This document shows, piece by piece, positions 30,426 to 52,161 of a DNA stretch of 52,184 nt. Position 1 is the stretch's first letter; each line of letters begins with the position of its first letter. A program made the position numbers and the translations under genes. The notes under the pieces are model-generated. The model saw only the letters and a list, made by a program, of their open reading frames with translations, had not been told where the DNA came from and ran no database searches. Source of the stretch: Candidatus Zemynaea palustris (lineage in GTDB: Bacteria > Vulcanimicrobiota > Vulcanimicrobiia > Vulcanimicrobiales > Vulcanimicrobiaceae); assembly GCA_003134695.1 (NCBI GenBank), contig PLCB01000006.1, positions 46,853-99,036 of the forward strand, written 5' to 3'.

Positions 30426-31244
30426 ATGCTCGAAGACGATTTCAGCGATGTTTTTCGAAAGGCCAAACGCGGCACCGGCGTCAGCGACGCGACGATCGCG
30501 GCGCAGACGGGCCTCAACCTCGCCAAATTGCAAGCCTGGACCAACGGCGACGGCGTCCCGAGCGATGCGGAGGCGCGCGCGATCGCGCGCTGTCTCGATC
30601 TCGACCCGGGAAAACTTGCCGATCTGGCCGGGCAGCGCTGGCATCCGCACGTCGCGCTTCCGAATGAAGTCCGGCATCATCCGCACGATCCGCATCCGTC
30701 CAACGGCTACCTGTTTCACTTGGAAGACGGGAAGACGGCGGCGTTGATCGACCCGGCGGGGCTGCCGGCGAATCTCATGCGCGCGATCGGCGAAGGTCCG
30801 TACGCGTTGCGCTACATCCTGATCACCCATAAGCACGCCGATCACTGCGATGCGACCGCCGACGTCGCGCGCGTGTTCCCCGACGCGCAGATCGTGATGC
30901 ACCAGGCCGACGCTTTTGCCATCGGCGCGCTCGCCCATAAAGCCTTGCCCGTGAAGGACGGCGAGAGCGTGCCCTTCGGCGACGGTGCCGAAGTTCGCAT
31001 GCTGCACACGCCCGGGCACACCGACGGCTCGTCGTGTTTCATGTTCCGATCGACCCTGTTCACCGGCGACACGCTGTTCGCGGGGAGCGTCGGCGGTGCG
31101 TTCGGCGACGTCAGCACGTATGCCGACATCCTCGACAGCGTTCGCAACAAACTCTTCAGATTAGACGACGAGACCGTGATCATGCCGGGTCACGGCCCAC
31201 CCTCGACGATCGCCGAAGAGAAAGCGCACAACCCGTTCTTCTAG
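30426..31244 (+). CDS. Metallo-beta-lactamase-fold hydrolase with N-terminal XRE-like HTH
   Basis: The 272-residue protein has two parts. Residues ~1-70 look like a Cro/XRE helix-turn-helix (FRKAKRGTGVSDATIAAQTG, LNLAKLQAWTNGDGVPSDAE). Residues ~75-272 are a glyoxalase-II-type metallo-beta-lactamase fold with THKHADH (134-140), the metal-binding HTPGHTDGS, FTGDTLFAG and PGHGPPSTI. All metal ligands are present, so a thioester or persulfide hydrolase activity is likely. The HTH could target it to DNA or be a recognition module; I know of no function for this fusion. Its last 27 bp are repeated at 32422. Confidence 0.83.
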   Translation: MLEDDFSDVFRKAKRGTGVSDATIAAQTGLNLAKLQAWTNGDGVPSDAEARAIARCLDLDPGKLADLAGQRWHPHVALPNEVRHHPHDPHPSNGYLFHLEDGKTAALIDPAGLPANLMRAIGEGPYALRYILITHKHADHCDATADVARVFPDAQIVMHQADAFAIGALAHKALPVKDGESVPFGDGAEVRMLHTPGHTDGSSCFMFRSTLFTGDTLFAGSVGGAFGDVSTYADILDSVRNKLFRLDDETVIMPGHGPPSTIAEEKAHNPFF

Positions 31245-31245
31245 G
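31219..31245 (+). repeat. 27-bp direct repeat, left copy (3' end of the HTH-MBL gene)
   Basis: The run AGAAAGCGCACAACCC-N-TTCTTCTAGG includes the last codons (KAHNPFF) and stop of the MBL gene. It recurs at 32422-32448 with one difference (G31235 to C). The pair bounds a ~1.2-kb lower-GC module. Confidence 0.9.
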
Positions 31246-31248
31246 GGT

Positions 31249-31280
31249 CGCCGAGGGTAGCCCAAGGTTACCGATGGGCG
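31249..31280 (+). terminator. Hairpin immediately after the HTH-MBL gene
   Basis: GGTAGCC / GGTTACC (7 bp with one G-U, loop CAA, 31256-31272) sits inside a CGCC / GGCG outer stem. There is no T-run, so it may be a weak or Rho-assisted terminator, or part of the leader of the next gene. Confidence 0.4.
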
Positions 31281-31355
31281 CCAAAGGCCGGGTTGTGCCT
31301 CGCAGGATAGCTTCAATAAATTGATGCACCACCCATGCGGGCTAGGAGGTCGGCG

Positions 31356-32309
31356 ATGAAACGTCCCGTTTCGGCGCTATCTGCTGCACTGTTCATCATC
31401 ACGCTCGGCGTGCCGGCCTGGGCCGCGACGTACGGTAGCGTCAACCTCATGGTTCCACTTACCATCGACGGCATACCCAACGTCCCAACGCCGGTTTTAA
31501 ATTGCATCATGCGCTCGAGCGCGGTCGGTGCTCTACCGTCCGCTTACCCCATTCCTAATGGCATTACGAGCTTGCTGCTGGCCCAGGCTCCGAATAGCCC
31601 AGGTTCTTCCTCATATCGTTATCGTGGCCCGGCCGTGGCTGTCGTTATCGTCAATTATGGCAATCCGAATTATCTTGGTACGGGTGCTGTCATCCGTTGC
31701 ACTTTCGACCCTGTCTGGGGATTCCAAATGACGCCCGCCTCGAACTATTATGTCGATTTCACGCTTCCCTCAGCGACGGGCACAGGCCCGACTTTCACAA
31801 CGAGCCCCATCGCAATTCAGGGCGTGCCGAAGCCGACGCCGACGCCGACGTTGTTGAGCGAGCGACTGATCATCATCGGCGTGGCGAAGCAGGAGATACG
31901 GGGCAACGCGTACCCGGTCCAGCCGCCGACTCGGGGGCCGGCTCTGACGAGATACGGAAACATCGCGCTGTTGGCCCCGCCTACCGCCAAGAAAACCTAC
32001 TACGACTTTATGTTGTGGCTTCCGCTAAGCGTCGACAGCTTGCCCAAACAGTCTCAAGAACCCGGTGTGCAGTGCTTGATTTTCTCAAGCCCCGTCGCCT
32101 TCCCAAAGGATAATTATTCCTCTACAGCCGCCGTGCCGCTGAGCCAGGGTTCAAACGGATATTTTTATCATGGTACCCCTGTTGCGGTACACATGGTCAG
32201 CAACGGTGAGATCGTGACGGGCACCGTCCTCCGCTGCAGTTTTTTCACTTTCCCAATGACGCGGTTCGCCCCAGGTTCGAAGGATCATGTTGATTTCATT
32301 CTTCCGTAG
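31356..32309 (+). CDS. Secreted protein of two duplicated ~105-residue domains, unknown family
   Basis: AGGAGG about 9 bp upstream decides for the ATG at 31356. The 317-residue product has a signal peptide (residues 1-24, ending PAWA). Two domains follow, 27-138 and 215-317, that align with each other: (V/L)PL(T/S)(I/V)D(G/S)(I/L)P near the start, one Cys after ~23 residues (C50, C240), GxPVAV, a second Cys in V(I/L)RC (C115, C294), and a closing YVDFTLP or HVDFILP. A Thr/Pro-rich linker (PKPTPTPTLL) separates them. The paired Cys probably form one disulfide per domain. Base composition is visibly less GC-rich than its neighbours. No known family is recognised. Confidence 0.72.
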   Translation: MKRPVSALSAALFIITLGVPAWAATYGSVNLMVPLTIDGIPNVPTPVLNCIMRSSAVGALPSAYPIPNGITSLLLAQAPNSPGSSSYRYRGPAVAVVIVNYGNPNYLGTGAVIRCTFDPVWGFQMTPASNYYVDFTLPSATGTGPTFTTSPIAIQGVPKPTPTPTLLSERLIIIGVAKQEIRGNAYPVQPPTRGPALTRYGNIALLAPPTAKKTYYDFMLWLPLSVDSLPKQSQEPGVQCLIFSSPVAFPKDNYSSTAAVPLSQGSNGYFYHGTPVAVHMVSNGEIVTGTVLRCSFFTFPMTRFAPGSKDHVDFILP

Positions 32310-32421
32310 CGCGTGGTTTAGTTCGCCGCCACTGTATCCGACCGATGGCTACCGAATGGCCACCGCGGCAAGATTTAGAAGCGGAAAAGCCTATGAAATC
32401 AAAGTTTCAGGCTAACAATAA

Positions 32422-32448
32422 AGAAAGCGCACAACCCCTTCTTCTAGG
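32422..32448 (+). repeat. 27-bp direct repeat, right copy
   Basis: This is a near-perfect (26/27) copy of 31219-31245, including codons for KAHNPFF and the stop, but outside any gene. Together the two copies delimit a segment of about 1.2 kb. Confidence 0.9.
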
Positions 32449-32550: not shown

Positions 32551-34251
32551 ATGTTGTCTAAGCCCAGTAGACGACTACGAACGCCCCTCGTGCGGATTGT
32601 GGTGTCGGTCGTATTGGCCGGCATTCTATCCGCCTGCTCGGGCGGAGGGGGAACGCAATCCGTGCCCTCTTCTCCGCAGAACCCGAACGCTCAGATGGTC
32701 CAAGTCACCTTCACGTACAATTGGAACGGGACGCTCTCGACGGCCCGGTCGCCGAAGTACGTACCGGCGACCGCGCGCAGCATCGGCGTCTCGGTCAACG
32801 GCGGAACATCGCAGTTTCTCAATGCGCCGGCGAGCACGCTCGTCATCGACGCACCCGTCGGCACCGACACGTTCACGATCACGGCGTTCGACGCCCAAAA
32901 CGGCCAGGGCAACGTCTTGAGCCGCGCCTCGGTGACCAAGCAAATCGTCGCCGGAGCGGCCAACACGGTGTCCGCCACCTTGAACGGCGTCGTTACCTCG
33001 ATGGCGATCAGCCTCAGCAATCCGAGCCCGAACGCCGGAGTGCCGGCGACGGTCAACGTCAATCTGGCGGCAAAGGATGCCGACGGCAACGTGATCGTCG
33101 GTCCGGGCGACTATAGCACCACGATTCACCTCACGATCAGCGACCCATCAGCCAGCGGCACCTTGTCGCTCTCGACGAACGACCTTCCGAATTCGGCGAC
33201 CACCGCCACGCTGACGTACAACGGCGGGACGCTGGCGAGCGGCCTCCCGGGCGCGCCGCTCGCGGCGGTCGTCGCGAGCGCTGCCGGCGTGACGACCGTG
33301 TCCGCAAGCTTCACACCGACGCCGACGTTCTATCAGTTCTCGATTCCGGTCTCCACAAATCGGCCTCAATGGATCGCAGCCGGGTCCGACGGCAACATGT
33401 GGTTTACGGAGAATCCCGGCGGTAAGGTCGCGCAGATTACCCCAGCGGGCGTGGTGACGGAATTCACCGTGCCGACCGCCAACGCGCAGCCGCAGATGAT
33501 CATCGGCGCCTCCGATGGCAACCTGTGGTTCACCGAGTTCTCGACGACGCCGCCTCCCGGCACAAGTAAAATCGCAAAGCTCACGACCAGCGGCACGTTC
33601 ACGGAATTCAGCACGCTGTTCGCTCCGCCGCCGCCGGACAATCCGCTCGGACTCGTTGACAGGCTCGACGGCAACATCTGGTACGTCGCCAACGGCAGCA
33701 GCCGGATGGGCTTCCAGGGTATAAGCTCGGGCGTTGCGGGCGAGACGAGCATCCCTACCGCGAACTCCGGCCCCTTTGGGATCGCGGCCGCACCGGACAA
33801 CAACCTCTACTACACGGAATCGGCGACCGACAAGATCGGCCGGATCGCCAACCTGTTCACCGCCCAGAGCGAGATTAGCTTGACCGCTGGGACGGTTCCC
33901 GAACAGATCGTGCGAGGTCCCGATGGCAACTTGTGGTTCACCGAATTCGGGAGCAACAAAATCGGACGGCTCTCGCCGAACTCGTTCTCGGTCACGGGCG
34001 AGTTTCCGACGCTCACGCCGAACGCCGGCCCGACGGGGATCACCGTCGGACAAGACGGCGCGCTGTGGTTTACCGAGACGGGTCTCGATAAGATCGGCCG
34101 CATCACGACCGGTGGCACCGTATCGGAATACACGTCTCCCGTCACCGGTCTCGGTTTGAGGGGCATCGGAGTCGCTCCCGACGGTTCGATCTGGTTCGCG
34201 GAACCTGGCAGCGGCCTCAGTCCCGGAAGCGTCGGAAAGTTGGTGTACTGA
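32551..34251 (+). CDS. Lipoprotein with seven-bladed Vgb-like (virginiamycin B lyase) propeller
   Basis: The 566-residue product has a lipoprotein signal with Cys C29 (LAGILSAC) followed by a Gly/Ser linker. Residues ~45-265 form one or two beta-sandwich (Ig-like) regions. The remainder is a beta-propeller of seven blades marked by DGNMWFTE, DGNLWFTE, DGNIWYVA, DNNLYYTE, DGNLWFTE, DGALWFTE and DGSIWFAE. Virginiamycin B lyase has this fold, but the catalytic residues cannot be confirmed and such lipoproteins are far commoner than the enzyme; a surface binding or cell-envelope role is at least as likely. It is followed one base later by the next lipoprotein gene, so the two form an operon. Confidence 0.85.
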   Translation: MLSKPSRRLRTPLVRIVVSVVLAGILSACSGGGGTQSVPSSPQNPNAQMVQVTFTYNWNGTLSTARSPKYVPATARSIGVSVNGGTSQFLNAPASTLVIDAPVGTDTFTITAFDAQNGQGNVLSRASVTKQIVAGAANTVSATLNGVVTSMAISLSNPSPNAGVPATVNVNLAAKDADGNVIVGPGDYSTTIHLTISDPSASGTLSLSTNDLPNSATTATLTYNGGTLASGLPGAPLAAVVASAAGVTTVSASFTPTPTFYQFSIPVSTNRPQWIAAGSDGNMWFTENPGGKVAQITPAGVVTEFTVPTANAQPQMIIGASDGNLWFTEFSTTPPPGTSKIAKLTTSGTFTEFSTLFAPPPPDNPLGLVDRLDGNIWYVANGSSRMGFQGISSGVAGETSIPTANSGPFGIAAAPDNNLYYTESATDKIGRIANLFTAQSEISLTAGTVPEQIVRGPDGNLWFTEFGSNKIGRLSPNSFSVTGEFPTLTPNAGPTGITVGQDGALWFTETGLDKIGRITTGGTVSEYTSPVTGLGLRGIGVAPDGSIWFAEPGSGLSPGSVGKLVY

Positions 34252-34252
34252 T

Positions 34253-35227
34253 ATGAACGCCATGACAAAGACATATCTTGGCATTCGCTCGGCGTTTGCG
34301 GCCCTCGCCTTCGGCGCGGTCGCACTCACGATGGCGAACTGTACGTCCACCAACTCACCTCCGATCATCATCCTCACGCCACTCCCGGCGGCGACGCCAA
34401 CGCCCAGCGCGATCCTGGTCAATCCAGGCTCGGTAGCCTTCACCGCGACCGGACAGACGCAAGCCTTCACCGCTACCGAGAACTTCTACACGGGAACGCT
34501 GACTGCGTCGACCGCGAACTGCACCGGCATCGCGACGATCTCGCCCGCCTCCGGAACGGGACCCGCCGCCTCGTTCACAGTCACGTCGGCCGGCAACGGG
34601 ACGTGTCAGTTCTCCGTGAAGGACTCGTTCAACCAAAGCACGTCGGTCAACGTCGTCGTTTCCCCGGGCGCGCTTCAGCCGCTCAACGTGAACCCGACTG
34701 GGCTGACTTTCAGCGGCGGGGGCGGGTCTCTGACCTTCACCGCGACCGAAAACGGATACTCGGGAACGATCACGGCCTCGACGACGAATTGCGGCGGCGT
34801 CGCGACCATTGCGCCGGCATCCGGAGTCGGACCAAGCGCCTCGTTCACGGTGACCGCGGTCGCCGTCGGATCGTGTCAGTTCTCGGTGAAGGACGCGACC
34901 AATCAAACCGCAGCGGTGAACGTCATCGTCAATCCGACGAGCAGCACCAACCCGCTGACCGCGAACACCGGTGCGGTATCGTTCACCGTCCCCGGTCAAG
35001 CCGCGAGCTTCACGGCCTCAGAAACTGGCTACGCCGGTACGCTGACCCAGACCAACAACTGCGCCGGCATCGCGACCGTCTCGCCGGCCTCCGGTACTGG
35101 GCCGAGTGCAATCTTCACGGTGACCGCGGTCGCCGCTGGGATCTGCCAAGTCACGGTCAAGGACTCCAGCAACCAAGTCACAATGGTCGGCGTCACGGTG
35201 ACGACGACTTCGGTGACCGCCAACTAA
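34253..35227 (+). CDS. Probable lipoprotein of three exact-period 90-residue Ig-like repeats
   Basis: The 324-residue product has a signal sequence with C30 in ALTMANC, a somewhat atypical lipobox (Asn before Cys). A Pro/Thr linker leads into three repeats starting near residues 54, 144 and 235. Each has F(T/S)ATE..Y.GT(L/I)T, NC.G(I/V)AT(I/V).PASG.GP, FTVT and CQ(F/V)(S/T)VKD..NQ. Cysteines at 90/118, 180/208 and 270/298 are exactly 28 apart with an exact 90-residue period, suggesting one disulfide per domain. The fold is probably bacterial Ig-like; function is unknown. It starts 1 bp after the propeller gene stop. Confidence 0.82.
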   Translation: MNAMTKTYLGIRSAFAALAFGAVALTMANCTSTNSPPIIILTPLPAATPTPSAILVNPGSVAFTATGQTQAFTATENFYTGTLTASTANCTGIATISPASGTGPAASFTVTSAGNGTCQFSVKDSFNQSTSVNVVVSPGALQPLNVNPTGLTFSGGGGSLTFTATENGYSGTITASTTNCGGVATIAPASGVGPSASFTVTAVAVGSCQFSVKDATNQTAAVNVIVNPTSSTNPLTANTGAVSFTVPGQAASFTASETGYAGTLTQTNNCAGIATVSPASGTGPSAIFTVTAVAAGICQVTVKDSSNQVTMVGVTVTTTSVTAN

Positions 35228-35286: not shown

Positions 35287-36945
35287 TTACGTCGTGGCGC
35301 TCGAGGTGTGCCGGCCGTCGGTGCCGGTGACGCGCACCTTTCCTATCTTCGCCTTCTCGTCGGGCGGCACGAGTTGGAATTCGATGATCTTGACGCCTGA
35401 TTGCGGGATCGCGACGCTCACTTTGAACGGTGAGCAGACTCGATCGGTGCAGAACGACGCCACCCAACCCTTCGGGACGCCGGAGGCGTGAAGCGCGACA
35501 TTCGTTCCGACCGCGTCGGCGACAACCAGACGGTACTTGAAGGTACTCTCGACGCTGCCGGGCAGATCGGCGCCCGTCCACGGCGCAAGCGAGACGGTCG
35601 TGGTCGTGACCGGCTTCGACAGGCCGAGCGCGACGATCGCCTCTTGTCCCTCTTCGAGGTACATGTCGTGCCGGATGTCGTCGGCCGGTAGCTTCTGCGT
35701 CCAGGCGATCACCTGTTCGAATTCGGCAAGGGCGTGCGCGTGGTCGCCGCCCTTGGCGTACGCGCGCCCGGCGTAGAGATGCGTCCAGGCGAGCTTGCGA
35801 ATGACGGCCGGCTTCGGCGTCGCATCGACGTGCTTTTTGCCGAGGGCGATCGCTTTACCGAAGATCGCGTAGGCTTCCGAAAAGCGCTTCGCCTTTCCGA
35901 GCGCGAGACCCAATTCGACGAGCGCGTCGACGCTATCGGGTTGCAGGAGAACGAGTCCCTGATCGGCGTCGATCTGCACGTCGGATTGATTCAGCCGTCC
36001 CGCCACGAACGCGATGCCGGAAAGAGCGTCGTCGTCCTTCGCGGAGAGCGCGACGGCGTCGCGGTACGCGGCAAGCGCGTCGCTCCATCGCTCGCGGTCG
36101 CGCGCGGCGTCCCCGCGCAGCCGCGCCAAGAGCTCCTTCGATTCGTCACTGGTTGCAGTGCTCGCGAGCGCCGCGATCCCGACGTCGCGAATCGTCGCCT
36201 CCTCGACGCGCGTGCGCAGCAAATCGGTCGAGTTGCCCTTGGCGGCATCGCTCTCGTTGAGCAGATCTTCGGCCTTATTGATCGCGGCGTCGACCTTCTT
36301 CGCATAGGCAAGCGTCGCCGCCGCGTCGGCGCCGGACGCCAAACCGGGATCGGCGAGCGCCAAATCGATCTTCTGCTGCAGTGGCGAAACGATCTCGGCG
36401 TTGCGACCGGCTTTCGCCGCGTCGACCATCAATGCCAGCTGCTGCGGTGCGACCACGTCAATGTAGCGTGCCCGCAAGATGCCTTGCGGGTCGATCACGA
36501 ACGTCGTCGGGAAGTACTGGATGTCATAGTCTTTCTGAAACTTCTTCTGCGCATCGATCGCTTGAGCGTAGGGCACGTTCTTGGCGACGACGTAGGCGCG
36601 CACGATCGGTGCCTCCTCGGTCGTGTCCACACCGAGAAACTCGACGCTCGTGGTGCGCAGCTTCGCATAACTCGAAAGCAGATCGGACATCTCTTGCCGG
36701 CACGGCGGGCACCAAGTCGCCCAGACGTTGATGACGAGCGTTTTCCCACGATAACGTGCGAGCGAGACGCTTTTTCCGTCGAGCGTGCGGAAGGAAAAGT
36801 CCGGCGCCGGCGCACCGACCTGGGGACCCGTGAGCGACTGCGTCCCGGCGGACGGAGGAGCGAGCGGCTCGGTTGCGCCGGCGAGGCGCGGACCGAGGGC
36901 AGCAGCCAGTCCGGCGGCCGCGGCGAGGGCAAGAAGACGTTTCAT
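35287..36945 (-). CDS. Exported thioredoxin-fold (TlpA/ResA-like) protein fused to TPR repeats
   Basis: The 552-residue product has a signal peptide (MKRLLALAAAAGLAAALG, cleavage near AGA). Residues ~42-175 are a TlpA-type redoxin with WCPPC (C79, C82), VINVWATWCPPC, the cis-Pro region YFPTTFVIDPQG and the insertion typical of periplasmic reductants. Residues ~200-450 are helical with TPR-like repeats (YRDAVALS, FGKAIALGK, ALAEFEQVIAW). Residues ~460-552 form an all-beta domain. Such proteins reduce disulfides outside the cytoplasmic membrane, for example in cytochrome c maturation; the TPR part suggests a protein partner. Its role here is not known. Confidence 0.82.
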   Translation of the reverse strand: MKRLLALAAAAGLAAALGPRLAGATEPLAPPSAGTQSLTGPQVGAPAPDFSFRTLDGKSVSLARYRGKTLVINVWATWCPPCRQEMSDLLSSYAKLRTTSVEFLGVDTTEEAPIVRAYVVAKNVPYAQAIDAQKKFQKDYDIQYFPTTFVIDPQGILRARYIDVVAPQQLALMVDAAKAGRNAEIVSPLQQKIDLALADPGLASGADAAATLAYAKKVDAAINKAEDLLNESDAAKGNSTDLLRTRVEEATIRDVGIAALASTATSDESKELLARLRGDAARDRERWSDALAAYRDAVALSAKDDDALSGIAFVAGRLNQSDVQIDADQGLVLLQPDSVDALVELGLALGKAKRFSEAYAIFGKAIALGKKHVDATPKPAVIRKLAWTHLYAGRAYAKGGDHAHALAEFEQVIAWTQKLPADDIRHDMYLEEGQEAIVALGLSKPVTTTTVSLAPWTGADLPGSVESTFKYRLVVADAVGTNVALHASGVPKGWVASFCTDRVCSPFKVSVAIPQSGVKIIEFQLVPPDEKAKIGKVRVTGTDGRHTSSATT

Positions 36946-50679: not shown

Positions 50680-52161
50680 CTAGAACTCCGCCAGCGCGTC
50701 GAGCGCGCGATCCTGCGCTTTATAGACGGCTTGCGACTCCGAGCGCGGATCGTTGACCAGGAACGCGAAGGCAACGCGCCCGTGAGCGTGCGTCTGAACG
50801 GTACCGGCGAGAGCGTTCACGTCGCGCAAATGCCCGCTCTTCGCCCGCGCGCGACCGAGTGCGGCGTGCAGTTCGTGATATCGAACCGTCCCCTCCAACG
50901 CGACCCGCGGTAGGCTCAGCAAGAACGCCCCGCGATTCGGACCGCGCAACGCGGCGGCGATCACCTGCGCAAGCGCGAGGGACGCGATCTTGTCGCTCGG
51001 GGCGAGACCGCTGCCGTCGTATGCCGTCATATGCGGATGGAGAACGCCGAGCCGGCGTAACTCGCTTCGTTCGAAGGCAAGCCCCGCTTCGTCGGTACCG
51101 GGCCGGCCCGAGCGTTCGCCGATAAGACGCAACAATTGTTCCGCGCTGTGATTGTTGGAGTGAACCAGCATCTCGCCGACGATCGCGGCGAGCGGCTGCG
51201 AACGATGCAGCCACAGCGTCTCTCCGACGAGCGGCGACGTCCCGTTTTGCGCGCCACCCGTAACGACGATCTTCTGCTGCGCGAGGAGTGCAACGAGCGC
51301 TCCGCCGACGTATGACGGAATCCCGAGCACCGGTTTCCAGTACTTCTGCATCGCGCCGGGCCCGACCGTACCGTCGACGACGAACGCGTTGGACGCGTCG
51401 CCCGCGCGGCGCTTGATGGTCAGGTCGGTCGTCCAACCGGTTTGAATCGTTCCGTCGATCGTGATGTCGTCGTTGGGCGGATCGATCGTGACGCGCGCCG
51501 GGCGCCCCGGGACCGTCGGCACGACGTGAAACTCGACGGTGCCTTGATCGAGCGAGAGCGCGCTCGTCGCGGCGGCGTAGCCCTCTTCGAGATCGCTCGG
51601 ATCCCAACGCGAATTCTGTTCGGGGCCGGCGAACGCACCGTCGTCGACGATCACGGGGCCGTCGATCTGCCGAATGCCGAGTCGCCGCAACGCCCCGACC
51701 CCGCCGCGCAAGTCGTCGGAGGTCAACAGCGGATCGCCGCCTCCTACCAGCCACAACGAACCGTGCAAGACGCCGTCCGGGCCGGGCTCGTCGAGCACGA
51801 CGAAGCTCGTCTCGAAGCGGTGTTGCGGGCCGAACAGGTCGAGCGCGGTAGCGGCGACGACGAGTTTTAACGTCGAGGCCGGCGTCATCGGTACGTTTGC
51901 ACGATGCGAATAGAGCACGCTGCCGTCGGCGGCGAGGATCGCCAGGGCGCCGCTGTGCGCGAAGATCTCGTCGTTGAAGATCGCATCCATGCGCCGCCGT
52001 AACGCGGTTCGGTCCGCTCGCGTCCAAGGCGGTACCGTCGGAAGCGGCCGTGCAATGGGCGCGGCTCGCGGCAAACTTGCGCTCGGCGGCGGCGCGCTCG
52101 GCCGAGTGCAACTCGAAAGGCACGCGATCGCGGCCGCCAATCCGAACGCGCGCAGCAGCAC
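50680..52161 (-). CDS. dacB: D-Ala-D-Ala carboxypeptidase/endopeptidase (PBP4, DacB), lipoprotein
   Basis: The 493-residue product has a lipoprotein-type signal (LAAAIACLSSC, Cys18). The peptidase S13 (PBP4) motifs are present in order: SxxK at S96-K99 (PASTLKLV), SNN in VHSNNHSAEQLL, and KSG in RAKSGHLRDVNALAG. It trims or cleaves peptidoglycan cross-links outside the cytoplasmic membrane. It sits at the window's right edge, with its ATG at 52161, 23 bp from the end, and precedes tldD on the same strand with a 23-bp gap. Confidence 0.92.
   Translation of the reverse strand: MLLRAFGLAAAIACLSSCTRPSAPPPSASLPRAAPIARPLPTVPPWTRADRTALRRRMDAIFNDEIFAHSGALAILAADGSVLYSHRANVPMTPASTLKLVVAATALDLFGPQHRFETSFVVLDEPGPDGVLHGSLWLVGGGDPLLTSDDLRGGVGALRRLGIRQIDGPVIVDDGAFAGPEQNSRWDPSDLEEGYAAATSALSLDQGTVEFHVVPTVPGRPARVTIDPPNDDITIDGTIQTGWTTDLTIKRRAGDASNAFVVDGTVGPGAMQKYWKPVLGIPSYVGGALVALLAQQKIVVTGGAQNGTSPLVGETLWLHRSQPLAAIVGEMLVHSNNHSAEQLLRLIGERSGRPGTDEAGLAFERSELRRLGVLHPHMTAYDGSGLAPSDKIASLALAQVIAAALRGPNRGAFLLSLPRVALEGTVRYHELHAALGRARAKSGHLRDVNALAGTVQTHAHGRVAFAFLVNDPRSESQAVYKAQDRALDALAEF

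What the first reader, a model, noticed from the sequence alone, without database searches (positions are those of the whole stretch)
31219..32448. 1.2-kb lower-GC module bounded by 27-bp direct repeats of a gene's 3' end
The last 27 bp of the HTH-MBL gene, including KAHNPFF and the stop, recur 1.2 kb downstream (26/27 identical). Between them lies a single lower-GC gene for an exported protein. The pattern resembles a cassette that integrated at, and duplicated, the 3' end of a gene, as integrative elements do at tRNA ends, but here at a protein gene and without an integrase.
Basis: partly seen in the sequence, partly recalled or inferred. Interest (0 to 1): 0.75.

Follow-up and report, generated by a model that had tools for sequence, protein, structure and literature searches.

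The report
Tiny integrase-less island behind a gene
A 1.2-kb stretch with one secreted-protein gene appears to have been inserted site-specifically at the end of a conserved hydrolase gene in a soil bacterium, keeping the DNA landing marks of a phage-type integrase but not the integrase gene, which suggests that very small pieces of DNA can move with recombinases supplied by other elements.

Summary
The last 27 bp of the HTH-MBL gene (31219-31245) recur at 32422-32448 (26/27), bounding a 1,203-bp unit of lower GC (56.7% against 64.1%) with one exported-protein gene. Relatives carry this 3' end once; this genome carries four copies. One of the others flanks a different cargo whose left end sits directly behind the same MBL gene in another genus (63/64 bp). 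Inside the right repeat, 56 bp from it, lies a paired ~11-bp arm repeat, GGCTACCGAATGGCCACCG. Across the class this arm pattern has 62 hits in 33 of 117 genomes (reversed control: about 6). Most of the loci examined lie ~45-75 bp from a tRNA end, and many directly follow a tyrosine-integrase gene. Intact islands show integrase, arms, ~48 bp, repeat at the tRNA. The window unit shows the same right end without the integrase. A 1.46-kb integrase-less unit with a perfect 39-bp repeat at tRNA-Ser is a parallel. So this is an integrase-less, tyrosine-recombinase-type mini-element with the MBL 3' end as attB. Its recombinase was not found. Whether it is a decayed remnant or a unit mobilised in trans is open.

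The parts
30426..31244 (+). HTH-MBL-fold hydrolase gene; its 3' end is the integration site (attB)
   Evidence: ORF; Pfam Lactamase_B; a match in all 60 relatives searched
31219..31245 (+). left repeat (attL core): AGAAAGCGCACAACCCGTTCTTCTAGG, includes the stop codon of the MBL gene
31246..31287 (+). left subterminal repeats, four ~10-bp units (GGTCGCCGAG GGTAGCCCAA GGTTACCGAT GGGCGCCAAA); putative recombinase arm sites
   Evidence: sequence; three units found by pattern at 31246, 31256, 31266; similar arrays right after the MBL stop in G129 and G130. Function inferred
31356..32309 (+). cargo: gene for an exported protein of two related domains, no Pfam or NCBIfam match
   Evidence: ORF 31335-32309, start 31356 preferred because of AGGAGG; no family; related to exported protein C45:172319-172795 of the same genome (phmmer 8.5e-10 in a local set); absent from 59 relatives
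32347..32365 (+). right arm repeat GGCTACCGAATGGCCACCG (two ~11-bp units), 56 bp inside the right repeat
   Evidence: same pattern next to integrase genes and tRNA att sites in the class
32422..32448 (+). right repeat (attR core), displaced copy of the MBL 3' end, AGAAAGCGCACAACCCCTTCTTCTAGG
   Evidence: its CCCC matches the MBL 3' end of same-genus G001

Best explanation
The unit 31219-32448 is a very small integrated element of the tyrosine-recombinase (phage-integrase) type that has no integrase gene of its own. A recombinase, supplied by another element or since lost, bound arm repeats at the element's ends and recombined a ~27-bp core on the excised circle with the identical core at the 3' end of the MBL gene. 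The element carries a copy of that 3' end, so the gene stays intact and the displaced original end marks the far boundary. The payload is one secreted-protein gene. Shown: the repeats, the arms and their spacing to the core, the same arms in integrase islands at tRNA genes, the recurrence of MBL 3' ends with other cargo. Inferred: circular intermediate, recombinase class and supply in trans or loss, and that the distal copy is the native one.
For: 27-bp repeat at the gene end. Four copies of the 3' end in this genome against mostly one in relatives. Cassette X: C55:51315-52784 has a 16-bp core on the left and a ~60-bp MBL 3' end on the right, and its first 64 bp lie directly after the MBL stop in G031 (63/64), so the unit travels with a copy of the 3' end, as att recombination predicts. 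Arm pattern: 62 hits in 33 of 117 genomes, about 6 for the reversed control; 18 of 30 loci have a tRNA-like end 30-120 bp downstream and 8 have an integrase gene close upstream. Intact islands have integrase, arms, +46 to +48 bp, repeat (L289, L290); the window has arms, +56 bp, repeat. Integrase-less parallel L277: 1.46 kb, perfect 39-bp repeat at tRNA-Ser, arms at +51, while G018 carries arms with the integrase at the same tRNA. Own contig C23: integrase C-terminus, then GGCTACGGAATGGCTAC, then ~85 bp to what reads as a tRNA end. G129: MBL, arm repeats, TPR-like cargo, arm block, degenerate MBL end, ~0.98 kb.
Against: No integrase was found in the unit or near the MBL gene among the integrase matches listed (that list was cut), and no element with both these arms, an MBL core and an integrase was found, so the cognate recombinase is unknown. 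No exact empty site in the same genus: G001 has other genes there. Cassette X and G130 lack the arm block beside the distal copy. The G129 distal end is weak (score 27, shuffle maximum 26). The left arm repeats are defined by few examples. All genomes are draft assemblies.
Confidence: 0.8

Rival explanations
1. Decayed remnant: a once larger island with its own integrase integrated at the MBL 3' end and lost everything except the ends and one gene (a CIME-like relic); no special small-element mobility. This is a sub-case of the best explanation.
For: Integrase fragments and relic islands occur in this genome (partial integrase matches on C16 and C23; C55 repeats of a tRNA end). CIMEs are defined as having lost integration and transfer genes but kept attL and attR (PMC5704250).
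Against: Near-perfect repeats (26/27 here, 39/39 in L277) with a similar size of ~1-1.5 kb and mostly one exported-protein cargo in several units, and absence of the integrase in each, fit recurrent small units better than independent decay. Not decisive.
Confidence: 0.45
2. Transposition with target-site duplication by a Cas1-type integrase (casposon-like), which also favours 3' ends of genes; the 27 bp is the target-site duplication.
For: Solo Cas1-HTH elements and their remnants are in this genome and relatives; a Cas1-element end lies close to an MBL 3' end at C45:173511; known casposon duplications are 1-27 nt and some sit at the 3' part of a protein gene (PMC4046053).
Against: The window unit has no Cas1-element termini; cassette X carries a longer copy of the MBL end into a site without the MBL gene, which a target duplication would not do; the arms match tyrosine-integrase islands.
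Confidence: 0.08
3. Homology-facilitated illegitimate recombination: foreign DNA recombined in the MBL gene on one side and joined illegitimately within its 3' end on the other, leaving a truncated duplicate.
For: The length of the duplicated end varies between cases (27, ~41, ~60, 530 bp); G130 with 530 bp fits this well.
Against: Does not predict the conserved arm block at a fixed ~50-bp distance from the repeat nor the 16-bp core on the other side of cassette X.
Confidence: 0.08
4. Chance similarity or a general downstream motif of such genes.
For: None beyond the shortness of the repeat.
Against: Score 49 against a shuffle maximum of 26; no second copy within 6 kb in 41 relatives.
Confidence: 0.01

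Closest known systems
Tyrosine-recombinase genomic islands and integrative mobilizable elements at gene 3' ends (e.g. SGI1 at trmE, MGIs at yicC, IMEs at rpsI or rpmG; PMC5704250)
   Same: 8-60 bp direct repeats that include the end of a protein gene and leave it intact; arm repeats near the core as in integrase islands of the same bacterial class
   Different: 1.2 kb with one cargo gene; no integrase, relaxase or oriT recognised; target is an MBL-fold hydrolase gene not in the review passages read
CIMEs (cis-mobilizable elements): decayed elements that keep attL and attR (PMC5704250)
   Same: att-like ends kept, integration genes absent
   Different: no adjacent integrase-bearing partner at the MBL site was found; cis mobilisation untested; several similar small units with mostly single exported-protein cargo
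SCC elements at the 3' end of rlmH in staphylococci (own knowledge)
   Same: integration at the 3' end of a protein gene, repeats at both ends, recombinase-less versions known
   Different: SCC uses serine recombinases (ccr); the signs here are of the tyrosine-recombinase kind; much smaller
Casposons (PMC4046053)
   Same: some insert at the 3' part of a protein gene with duplications up to 27 nt
   Different: no Cas1, PolB or casposon ends in the unit

Membership tests
[quoted passage not shown]
   (272-aa ORF intact)
Integrative element of the tyrosine-recombinase kind | arm-type repeats near the core like those of integrase-bearing islands | tested here: met
   spacing +56 bp against +46 to +52
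Integrative element of the tyrosine-recombinase kind | element present in some genomes and absent from relatives at the same site | tested here: met
   cargo only in G000 of 60; MBL followed by other or no DNA in relatives; no exact empty site in the same genus
Integrative element of the tyrosine-recombinase kind | encodes its own integrase | tested here: not met
   ORFs 31246-32421 have no integrase; none near MBL among the matches listed
Integrative element of the tyrosine-recombinase kind | excises as a circle and re-integrates | not testable with these tools
   needs reads or PCR
CIME | no integration or transfer genes, attL and attR kept | tested here: met
   definition in PMC5704250
CIME | derived from a larger element; mobilised in cis by an accreted partner | not testable with these tools
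   no partner at the MBL site was found; derivation unknown
Casposon | Cas1 (casposase) and PolB genes with terminal inverted repeats | tested here: not met
   no such genes in the unit; no inverted repeat of its two ends was reported
SCC | ccr serine recombinase genes, rlmH target | tested here: not met
   target is an MBL gene; no PF07508 recombinase in the whole genome
Integron gene cassette | attC site with integron integrase platform | not tested
   no integron integrase recognised near; attC folding not searched

The most novel reading that the evidence does not exclude
Bacteria of this class (Eremiobacterota) host a population of integrase-less cassettes of about 1-1.5 kb, usually with one secreted-protein gene, that keep only the core and arm sites and are moved in trans by the tyrosine integrases of larger islands with the same arms: a counterpart, for phage-type integrases, of MITEs or integron cassettes, using tRNA genes and the 3' end of an MBL hydrolase gene as homes.
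Probability: 0.35. Interest if true: 0.75.

Novelty: new variant of a known kind. Interest (0 to 1): 0.52.

Why it matters
Genomic islands are usually recognised by their integrase. If units that keep only the landing sites are common, much small-scale gene gain at the ends of tRNA and protein genes is invisible to present island finders. A searchable arm signature (GGCNACCGAATGGCNACCG about 50 bp from a repeat) is offered here, which makes the question of trans-mobilisation testable in a phylum with almost no genetics.

Tried and rejected
Phage, plasmid and viral-contig searches for the cargo, the 3' end and cassette X gave no match. Structure prediction of the cargo alone failed (mean pLDDT 30) and was not used. 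Casposon-type integration was pursued at length because Cas1-HTH remnants lie near one MBL 3' end, then set aside in favour of the tyrosine-integrase arms. Integrase next to the MBL gene in relatives: none among the matches listed (list cut). G021 has a possible decayed second copy at +731, within noise. A regular-expression search for integrases near the arms missed most of them and was replaced by a profile search.

Full report
Observation. The two 27-bp copies (31219-31245, 32422-32448) are real and differ at one base. The match scores 49 against at most 26 in shuffles. The first copy is the last 26 bp, stop included, of a 272-aa MBL-fold gene with an HTH-like N-terminus, plus one base. The DNA between them is 56.7% GC in a 64.1% GC window and holds one exported-protein gene without a family match.

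Where it is. The window lies in a draft genome of 2.70 Mb, 61 contigs, 96.7% complete. All 60 relatives searched have a match to the MBL protein. In several relatives the next gene is a TlpA-like gene on the opposite strand or an ABC-2 permease, which in the window start at 36945 and 38190. So the stretch between the MBL stop and the TlpA-like gene is accessory. In genus g8 this stretch measures 103 bp (G134), 1,076, 1,290, 2,616, 2,917, 2,967 and 6,464 bp in seven genomes: a hotspot. The window cargo was not found in any of 59 relatives.

The repeat is not a general motif. A pattern for the 3' end (up to one mismatch) has four matches in this genome and usually one or none in others. No second copy lies within 6 kb in 41 relatives.

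The same 3' end with other cargo. At C55:52764 an MBL 3' end of about 60 bp ends a 1.45-kb unit (X) with two genes on the minus strand, and a 16-bp core AATCCGTTTTTCTAGG begins it near 51320. In G031 the MBL stop codon is followed directly by 64 bp that match the left end of X at 63 of 64 positions; the contig then ends. X therefore sits at the MBL 3' end in one genus, and in a tRNA-linked region with an MBL 3' end attached in another. At C45:173532 a third MBL 3' end lies in an island that holds the only homologue seen of the window cargo (C45:172319-172795). In G130 a complete MBL gene, a 602-aa cargo gene and the last 176 codons of an MBL gene follow one another. In G129 the MBL gene is followed by arm repeats, a TPR-like gene, an arm block and a degenerate MBL end 0.98 kb on (weak by score).

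The ends of the unit. Right after the MBL stop the window has four ~10-bp repeats (31246-31287); G129 and G130 have similar arrays at the same place. Near the right end, 32347-32365, lies GGCTACCGAATGGCCACCG, 56 bp before the right repeat. In 1.85 Mb of fetched sequence this pattern occurred with at most one mismatch only in the window, G129 and G130, each behind an MBL gene. In 117 genomes of the class it has 62 hits in 33 genomes, against about 6 for the reversed pattern. Of 30 loci read, 18 have a tRNA-like end 30-120 bp downstream (ARAGORN confirms 12), and 8 have a tyrosine-integrase gene close upstream. Two intact islands show integrase, arms, 46-48 bp, then a 24-30 bp repeat at a tRNA (L289, L290). 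The window's own genome has an integrase fragment followed by GGCTACGGAATGGCTAC and, about 85 bp on at the contig end, what reads as a tRNA end.

A parallel without integrase. In G125 a 1.46-kb unit is bounded by a perfect 39-bp repeat of tRNA-Ser, has the arm block at the same spacing (51 bp), an exported-protein gene and no integrase, while in G018 of the same genus the arm block at that tRNA follows an integrase gene. It is the closest match to the window's unit.

Mechanism. The data fit site-specific recombination of the tyrosine-recombinase kind: core at the gene end, arms at a fixed distance, the gene restored by the incoming copy. That the distal copy is the native one is suggested by a single base (CCCC as in G001, against CCCG in the proximal copy). 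A target-site duplication does not explain why X carries an MBL end to a place without an MBL gene. The recombinase was not identified: no integrase lies near the MBL gene among the integrase matches listed for relatives (the list was cut), and no arm-plus-MBL-core element with an integrase was seen. Supply in trans and later loss cannot be told apart here.

Known kinds. Integrative elements at the 3' ends of protein genes with 8-60 bp repeats, and CIMEs that have lost their integration genes but keep att sites, are described (PMC5704250). The window unit works like these. It fails one usual feature of an autonomous element, its own integrase, and is filed as an integrase-less variant. It fails the tests for casposons and SCC.

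Limits. Draft metagenome assemblies; few examples with arms and MBL core together (window, G129, G130); no exact empty site; the motif was first derived from MBL loci and then tested on the class, where its link to integrases and tRNA ends is independent.

Noticed in passing
own contig C45:160-195 kb (L047-L049); L151:8358-11133, L152, L153:7068-8705, L154: Solo Cas1 genes with a C-terminal HTH (about 545 aa, TIGR00287 E 1.3e-28), near a protein with a weak PolB match in one locus. The 3' end of this gene (...GTRVPHPRHW...) recurs as 5'-truncated copies with a common 3' end, several of them alternating with small exported-protein genes, and in G020 bounding an Mrr restriction gene. Possibly casposon termini or cassette boundaries.
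   Followed up: partly
own contig C55:51117-84883: Repeated tRNA 3' ends (near 51117, 53686 and the contig end) with an integrase gene at 83603-84769: an accreted tRNA island, with unit X and its MBL 3' end at its edge.
   Followed up: partly
G125 C33 (L277, L295): 1.46-kb integrase-less unit with a perfect 39-bp tRNA-Ser repeat and one exported-protein gene.
   Followed up: yes
genus g8, MBL region (L237, L244-L252, L204): A ~180-bp segment that lies upstream of the MBL gene in G130 lies downstream of it in G131, G133, G135 and G008, so the gene or the segment has moved relative to the backbone.
   Followed up: no
window 32551-35227: A virginiamycin-B-lyase-like propeller lipoprotein gene and a repeat-rich exported-protein gene follow the unit; also accessory relative to relatives where the MBL gene meets the TlpA-like gene directly.
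   Followed up: no
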